Below are positions 2,179 through 3,303 of a stretch of DNA of 64,000 nucleotides, piece by piece; the stretch's first letter is position 1, and the number at the start of each line of letters is the position of its first letter. The stretch spans positions 1-64,000 of the forward strand of contig CAIUQR010000033.1 in the NCBI GenBank assembly GCA_903901335.1, written 5' to 3'. This DNA comes from an uncultured delta proteobacterium (GTDB taxonomy: Bacteria > Desulfobacterota > Desulfobulbia > Desulfobulbales > Desulfocapsaceae). Below the pieces are notes generated by a model. That model worked only from the letters and a program-made list of their open reading frames with translations. It had not been told where the DNA came from and searched no databases. The position numbers and the translations under genes were made by a program.

Positions 2179-3303
2179 TCAGGTCTTCTTGATCTCGGGA
2201 AATCCACTCTGGAAATGTAGAGGCGGTCGCGGCCGGCTGATAATTTTTCTGATCCGGAGGAATACCGGCCTGATGGAAAGACCCAGGAGGATAATCGCCC
2301 CGGGGACCTTAGCCTGGAGAGGGATGAGGTCGGCAGCCTCACCGATAACCGCCTTGGGGACGATGTGGAAGAATCGATAAACTTCATCCAGTCCCAGGCC
2401 CATAATGATGGCAAAGAAGGAAAGGGCCAACAGGTAGCGAAGGGTACTTTTCTTTCCTAGAATACCGGTTAACACCGAGAGAGAGGTGATATTTGTCGCC
2501 GGCCCCGCCAGCAGAAAGACGAGAGCCGCCCCCGGACTTACCCCTTTTAAGATTAAAGCGGCAGCAATAGGTGTAGAGGCCGATGCACAGATATACATCG
2601 GGATAGCGACGACCAGCATGGCCAGCATGGAGGAAAAACCGCCCCCAAGCCAGCGCTCCATAAATGCATCAGGCACTATTGCCATAATACACCCGGCCAC
2701 AAACAGACCTGCAAAAAACCAGAGGGCGATATCCCCCCATATATCGAGAAGTGCAAAGCGTAAACCGGCCCGCACCTTTTCAAAAAAGGAATGATGATGG
2801 GCATGTACTTCCGCCGGACATTCTGTGCCGTCACAACAATTATCAACAGGACAGCTCAGATCAACCGGCAGCTCGCGCTCATTTTTTTTCCAATGAAGAC
2901 AATTTTCAAGAAATCCGGCCCCTATTGCCGAGATAAAGGCAGCCACAGGCCGCATTACGGTCATGATCGGATCCAGGAGGGCAAGCGATATTGCAATCGA
3001 ATCAATCCCGGATTCCGGAGTGGCAATCAAAAAGGCGGTGATTGCCCCTTTGTTGGCTCCCTTCTTCTGTAATAATGTTGCCGCCGGCAACACACCACAC
3101 GATCAGAGCGGAAGCGGCACGCCGAAGAGGGCAGCCTTGACAACCGAGGAAAACCGCCCGCCCCCTAGATGATTCATGATGAAAACCGGGTTCAGAACGA
3201 CATTCAACATTCCGGCGATGACAATGCCGAAGAGAATATACACCGATGAATCCAGCAGGATACTCCAGGATGCCCTGAAGATGGTTAAAAATATCTCAAT
3301 CAC
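2179..3303 (-). CDS. SO_0444-type Cu/Zn (metal) efflux permease, candidate selenoprotein with in-frame TGA (Sec) at 3103-3105
   Basis: Two called ORFs (3103-3303 and 2179-3093) are in the same frame, separated by one TGA: ...KAALFGVPLPL-[TGA]-SCGVLPAATLLQKKGANKGAITAFLIATPESGIDSI. Second repeat VAIPMYICASASTPIAAALILKGVSPGAALVFLLAGPATN and the Cys/His-rich loop CPVDNCCDGTECPAEVHAHHH fit the metal-permease family. GTG start overlaps the end of arsR. Confidence 0.85.
3076..3092 (-). promoter_or_regulatory. Candidate bacterial SECIS hairpin downstream of the in-frame TGA
   Basis: Coding-strand TGA-tcgtgtggtg-[tgttgcc GGC ggcaaca]: perfect 7-bp stem, loop begins with G, loop 17 nt after TGA. Confidence 0.7.

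What the first reader, a model, noticed from the sequence alone, without database searches (positions are those of the whole stretch)
2179..3303. Candidate selenocysteine-containing metal permease (SO_0444-type), split by ORF callers at an in-frame UGA
Seen directly: ORFs 3103-3303 and 2179-3093 are in one frame and joined by a single TGA, giving ...LFGVPLPL-U-SCGVLPAA... From memory, Cys homologues of this family read PLPLCSCGV, so the TGA replaces the first Cys of a CxC metal motif. No other disruption is seen across 374 codons, and the Cys/His loop and second repeat (VAIPMYICASASTP...GPATN) are intact. Sec in place of a metal-binding Cys in an efflux permease would be unusual chemistry. I cannot say from here whether it has been reported.
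Basis: partly seen in the sequence, partly recalled or inferred. Interest (0 to 1): 0.9.

Follow-up and report, generated by a model that had tools for sequence, protein, structure and literature searches.

The report
Selenocysteine-containing metal-efflux permease gene
A bacterial gene that standard software cuts in two at a UGA codon is in fact one gene for a metal-export membrane protein carrying the rare amino acid selenocysteine at its probable metal-binding site; this selenoprotein type is already listed in the literature, but some of its relatives carry selenocysteine at a second site that the list does not mention.

Summary
One frame (window 3303-2179, minus strand) encodes a 374-residue SO_0444-family (NF033936) permease interrupted only by TGA at 3105-3103. 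The column is invariant Cys in non-Sec relatives (PLPLCSCG). Forty-nine loci carry a TGA at exactly this codon. The downstream hairpin (loop 18 nt after UGA) is intact in 41/49 TGA forms and 2/66 Cys forms, far beyond what synonymous codon choice gives. The window's genome has SelA, SelB, tRNA-Sec and a SelD that itself reads TCGUAAK. So this is a genuine selenoprotein gene.

It is not new in kind: a 2026 review (PMC13188914) lists this family as UxC, 1 Sec, GenBank annotated. The window gene is a new member. Added here: (i) Sec and Cys exchanged repeatedly (10 changes on the tree, at least 6 forced); (ii) Sec67 lies pseudo-symmetrically opposite Cys239 of the second repeat, pointing to the transport site; (iii) a second Sec position, CxU in the Cys/His loop, in 17 related genes from nine families with a strongly covarying hairpin, plus one gene with both UGAs. 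The review does not list (iii). Metal specificity and the benefit of Sec are inferred, not shown.

The parts
2179..3303 (-). selenoprotein gene, SO_0444-family (NF033936) metal-efflux permease, 374 aa with Sec67; stop TGA at 2181-2179
3103..3105 (-). in-frame UGA read as selenocysteine (Sec67), UxC motif
   Evidence: Cys/Sec column
3076..3092 (-). SECIS-like hairpin: UGUUGCC-GGC-GGCAACA, apical loop beginning 18 nt after the UGA, G first in the loop
3097..3099 (-). Cys69 codon, second residue of the UxC motif
   Evidence: invariant
2791..2853 (-). Cys/His-rich loop between the two repeats (C151, C156, C157, C162, H167, H169-171); the region where other families place a second Sec (CxU)
2587..2589 (-). 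Cys239 of the second repeat (PMYICASAST), aligned internally with Sec67
   Evidence: repeat alignment; helix break
3296..3685 (-). upstream ArsR/SmtB-family metalloregulator with CVC motif and Cys-rich N-terminus; its end overlaps the permease start by 8 nt
   Evidence: neighbour conserved

Best explanation
Window 3303-2179 (minus) is a selenoprotein gene. UGA at codon 67 is decoded as selenocysteine by SelB and tRNA-Sec at a bacterial SECIS hairpin immediately downstream. The product is an SO_0444-family inner-membrane permease, probably exporting soft metal ions (Cu/Zn/Cd type) under control of the adjacent ArsR/SmtB repressor. Sec67 and Cys69, in the broken helix of repeat 1, with Cys239 at the matching place in repeat 2, probably form the central metal-binding transport site. 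Sec would replace a Cys ligand there with one that is ionised at neutral pH and binds soft metals more tightly (general chemistry, not tested). Shown: frame, column, hairpin specificity, recurrence, Sec machinery. Inferred: translation through the UGA in the cell, substrate, site geometry, benefit of Sec. The confidence given is for the selenoprotein claim; for metal efflux as the role about 0.8; for Sec67 as a direct transport ligand about 0.6.
For: Single in-frame TGA in an otherwise intact gene. Invariant Cys at the column in 53 Cys homologues; 49 TGA loci, all at the UxC codon. Hairpin fully paired in 41/49 TGA forms vs 2/66 Cys forms; synonymous-codon resampling never exceeded 5/49 in 2000 draws; pairs with changes on both sides. 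In this genome SelA 629 bits, SelB 391 bits, tRNA-Sec with TCA anticodon, SelD with TCGUAAK. SelB over cut-off in 21 of 23 checked genomes with TGA forms. Sec/Cys exchange at least six times on the tree. Function: NF033936, ArsR-like gene upstream in 26/32 Sec loci with enough flank, SO_0444 needed for Zn and Cu tolerance in Shewanella (PMC3219624), homologue induced by Cd and Cu in Nitratiruptor (PMC10092412). Sec67 aligns with Cys239 in the internal repeat, score 137 vs at most 58 in 500 shuffles.
Against: No protein-level evidence. LPAA after the UGA is conserved protein sequence, so part of the hairpin is constrained by the protein (addressed by the Cys-form and codon-resampling controls). 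The resampling ignores relatedness of the sequences. Eight of 49 TGA forms do not keep all 7 pairs in this register; some fold a different hairpin. Metal substrate is transferred from distant homologues. The structural model has moderate confidence (pLDDT 79) and no significant PDB match.
Confidence: 0.93

Rival explanations
1. Pseudogene or sequencing error: a Cys codon (TGC/TGT) mutated or was misread to TGA, leaving a dead or truncated gene.
For: A single base change converts TGT/TGC to TGA; database gene callers give the truncated 305-aa form.
Against: TGA at the identical codon in 49 loci of many genera, including a 76%-identical relative in the same genus; no other disruption; hairpin conserved in TGA forms only; repeated exchange between Cys and Sec.
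Confidence: 0.02
2. The 304-aa downstream ORF (GTG at 3093) is a real, separate product made by re-initiation, with the UGA acting as a stop.
For: A GTG lies 9 nt after the UGA, and databases hold many such calls.
Against: It would lack the first part of repeat 1 and one half of the Sec67/Cys239 pair; full-length Cys forms are the rule in relatives; the hairpin and Sec machinery have no role in this reading.
Confidence: 0.03
3. It is a selenoprotein, but Sec67 serves a redox role (UxC as a selenenylsulfide switch or reductase motif) rather than acting as a metal ligand in transport.
For: UxC is a redox-like motif and the review suggests redox roles for most uncharacterised selenoproteins (PMC13188914).
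Against: No thioredoxin-like domain; the residue sits in a membrane helix break opposite Cys239; the family phenotype is metal tolerance (PMC3219624).
Confidence: 0.25

Closest known systems
SO_0444 family Cu/Zn efflux transporter, selenoprotein form (NF033936, UxC, WP_014809615.1; PMC13188914 Table 1)
   Same: Same family, same UxC motif, one Sec
   Different: Nothing in kind; this is another member, from a genome whose nearest named relative is Desulfocapsaceae (L009). The listed entry rests on a database annotation; hairpin specificity and Sec/Cys exchange are tested here
SaoE efflux transporter (NF040736) of the Sec-assisted organometallic system
   Same: Homologous permease (174 bits)
   Different: Far below its 325-bit cut-off; SaoE itself is not in the part of the review's selenoprotein table that names Sao proteins, and no Sao genes were sought here
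ArsP organoarsenical permease (PF03773)
   Same: Same Pfam domain (129 bits)
   Different: NCBIfam places this protein in the SO_0444 Cu/Zn equivalog
Other Sec-containing metal transport proteins in the review (putative mercuric transport protein, E1-E2 ATPase)
   Same: Sec proposed in a metal-handling Cys motif
   Different: Unrelated families

Membership tests
Bacterial selenoprotein genes | In-frame UGA aligned with Cys (or Sec) in homologues | tested here: met
Bacterial selenoprotein genes | SECIS hairpin just downstream of the UGA with a G near the start of the apical loop | tested here: met
   loop GGC begins 18 nt after the UGA (consensus spacing recalled from bSECISearch)
Bacterial selenoprotein genes | selA, selB, selC, selD in the genome | tested here: met
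Bacterial selenoprotein genes | Sec detected in the protein (75Se or mass spectrometry) | not testable with these tools
   bench experiment
SO_0444 Cu/Zn efflux family (NF033936) | Score above curated cut-off over the full length | tested here: met
   392 bits vs 300, residues 12-345
SO_0444 Cu/Zn efflux family (NF033936) | Zn/Cu efflux activity | not testable with these tools
   known by mutant fitness for SO_0444 only (PMC3219624)
SaoE (NF040736) | Score above curated cut-off | tested here: not met
   173.7 bits vs 325
Known SO_0444 selenoprotein form (UxC, 1 Sec) | UxC motif, single Sec | tested here: met
   PMC13188914 Table 1

The most novel reading that the evidence does not exclude
The SO_0444 permease family has evolved selenocysteine at two different Cys-ligand sites: UxC in the probable transmembrane transport site (the window gene) and CxU in the Cys/His loop between the repeats (17 genes in nine Desulfobacterota families, motif GCGU, Cys counterpart CGC), with at least one gene carrying both. 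This would make it a natural series for testing Sec as a metal ligand in transport.
Probability: 0.85. Interest if true: 0.6.

Novelty: new member of a known kind. Interest (0 to 1): 0.42.

Why it matters
Sec is mostly known as a redox catalyst. A large permease family in which Sec and Cys swap repeatedly at the probable metal site, and in which a second loop ligand has also become Sec, gives a natural comparison for what selenium does as a transport ligand. Practically, gene callers truncate or split these genes, so metal-efflux permeases are mis-annotated across sulfate-reducing bacteria and their metagenomes.

Tried and rejected
Pseudogene or sequencing error: rejected by the 49-locus recurrence. 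UGA recoded as Trp: rejected because the column is Cys and UGA ends other genes in the window, this one included. SaoE membership: below cut-off. ArsP as the family: the SO_0444 model fits far better. Sec limited to genomes with detected SelA: of 38 family genomes with TGA forms, SelA was missed in 7 and weak in 1; SelB was over cut-off in 6 of those 8. Other in-frame TGA genes in the window: a hexamer scan gave three places; the top one (38391) is the ordinary junction of a polyprenyl diphosphate synthase gene and dxs, the other two were not pursued. That scan also missed the gene in question, so it is insensitive. PDB by sequence: no match. PDB by fold: only weak resemblance to TRAP/DASS/AbgT elevator transporters, no E <= 0.001. 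Haft and Gwadz 2023 and Haft and Tolstoy 2025 are not held, so mention of the loop-Sec form there cannot be excluded; deep-Sep (PMC12013277) does not mention this family in its main text.

Full report
OBSERVATION. The minus strand of window 3303-2179 is one open frame interrupted by a single TGA at 3105-3103. Read with Sec there, it gives 374 residues containing GVPLPL-U-SCGVLPAA. The protein is above the NCBIfam cut-off for NF033936, SO_0444 family Cu/Zn efflux transporter (392 vs 300 bits, residues 12-345), and matches Pfam ArsP_1.

COLUMN AND RECURRENCE. In 53 full-length Cys homologues residue 67 is invariant Cys, as are S68, C69 and C239. A search of 98 genomes of the same family found the gene in most, with 'one TGA inside' in 38. 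A sample of 398 genomes of the phylum gave more. Extracting the frames shows 49 distinct loci with the TGA at exactly the UxC codon and 66 with Cys there. At least 23 of the 120 best database hits are ~305-aa proteins covering 81% of the query; the eight of them that were read all start at VLPAA, MLPAA or MPAA, i.e. right after the UGA. They look like gene-caller truncations of the same selenoprotein.

SECIS. The 51 nt at and after the UGA fold at -16.7 kcal/mol, z = -2.8. The hairpin UGUUGCC-GGC-GGCAACA begins 11 nt and its loop 18 nt after the UGA. All seven pairs form in 41/49 TGA forms against 2/66 Cys forms, although the encoded peptide (LPAA) is shared. Redrawing synonymous codons from the Cys homologues gave on average 0.5 and at most 5 fully paired of 49 in 2000 draws. 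On 21 TGA-form sequences, three pairs show changes on both sides and the covariation score exceeds all 500 shuffles and all slid versions. Caveat: the sequences are related, so these counts are not probabilities.

MACHINERY. The window's own genome (4.83 Mb, 155 contigs) has SelB, SelA, two SelD genes over cut-off, one with an in-frame TGA in the motif ARTCGUAAKIG, and a tRNA-Sec with anticodon TCA. Among 23 other genomes with TGA forms (including those where SelA was not found), 21 have SelB over the cut-off; the exceptions are G047 (75% complete) and G069.

EVOLUTION. A 139-row tree (quick IQ-TREE, SH-aLRT only) needs 10 changes for the UxC-Sec label, at least 6 of them forced by well-supported branches. 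Sec and Cys have therefore exchanged repeatedly. U was written as C in the alignment, so the trait itself carries no signal in the tree.

ANATOMY AND MECHANISM. The protein is an internal duplication: residues 18-130 align with 191-302 with score 137 (500 shuffles reach at most 58), and Sec67 pairs with Cys239. In the AlphaFold2 model (mean pLDDT 79, pTM 0.80) both residues lie at breaks between helices (62-67; 237-239). Weak fold matches are elevator-type transporters with inverted repeats: TRAP SiaQM, VcINDY and AbgT (TMq 0.4-0.5, none at E <= 0.001). I infer that Sec67, Cys69 and Cys239 form the central metal site. Upstream, overlapping by 8 nt, is an ArsR/SmtB regulator with a CVC motif. 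An ArsR-like gene is upstream in 26/32 Sec and 26/40 Cys loci with enough flank. SO_0444 is required for growth of Shewanella under Zn or Cu stress (PMC3219624), and a homologue is among the most induced genes under Cd and Cu in Nitratiruptor (PMC10092412). Soft-metal efflux with a selenolate ligand is thus the most likely role; the substrate and the advantage of Sec are inferred.

A SECOND Sec SITE. Relatives in other Desulfobacterota families keep Cys at the UxC site but have an in-frame TGA in the Cys/His loop, motif GCGU. Seventeen loci from families f63, f84, f101, f110, f111, f112, f120, f121 and f123 share a hairpin in fixed register (stem nt 13-19 with 23-29 after the UGA, loop GT[TGC], first G invariant). 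On 16 distinct sequences 91% of cells pair, five of seven pairs change on both sides, and covariation is 0.570 against 0.313 shuffled (0/500) and at most 0.318 when slid. This loop is poorly conserved as protein, so the covariation is hard to explain other than by RNA structure. Cys counterparts read CGC (for example L205 EPGCGCP, L214 EGCGCS). The four of these genomes tested (G224, G323, G365, G405) have SelB. One gene, G169 (L100), has both the UxC TGA and a loop TGA (DASTUADNHC) with an 8-bp hairpin.

COMPARISON WITH WHAT IS KNOWN. The 2026 review of the prokaryotic selenoproteome lists 'SO_0444 family Cu/Zn efflux transporter, NF033936, UxC, 1 Sec, GenBank annotated' (PMC13188914). The finding itself is therefore a new member of a known selenoprotein family. 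The CxU loop form and the double form are not given in that entry. Two key papers (Haft and Gwadz 2023; Haft and Tolstoy 2025) were not available, so I cannot say that nobody has noted them.

SCORES. Interest 0.42: the gene itself is a well-supported member of a listed family; the repeated Sec/Cys exchange and the second Sec site raise it above routine.

Noticed in passing
L102, L103, L104, L105, L196, L207, L211, L223, L225, L226, L230-L236: Second selenocysteine site (GCGU, CxU motif) in the Cys/His loop of SO_0444-family permeases of other Desulfobacterota families, with a covarying SECIS-like hairpin in fixed register; not given in the 2026 review's entry for the family.
   Followed up: yes
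L100 (G169:C25), also L171: One SO_0444-family gene with two in-frame TGAs, one at the UxC site and one in the loop (DASTUADNHC), each followed by a plausible hairpin.
   Followed up: partly
L236 and L223 (both G560): One genome carries two SO_0444-family genes, both with a loop TGA.
   Followed up: no
L069 and L131: Two Cys forms read PLPLCCCG, with the Ser of the CSC motif also replaced by Cys.
   Followed up: no
L020 (G000:C111:32785-33714): One SelD of the window's genome is itself a selenoprotein (TCGUAAK); a second SelD without TGA is on C37.
   Followed up: partly
window 3296-3685, minus: ArsR/SmtB regulator with CVC motif and a Cys-rich N-terminus (CKRGMKEDKCGC), reminiscent of CadC-type sensors (from memory).
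   Followed up: partly
window 13682-16987, minus: 1101-aa protein with similarity to TOMM-system kinase/cyclase (326 bits, below cut-off) and an AfsR-like part.
   Followed up: no
L146, L151, L179-L181 and similar distant hits: More distant permeases show a TGA inside the matched stretch; some may be read-through past a normal stop; not examined.
   Followed up: no
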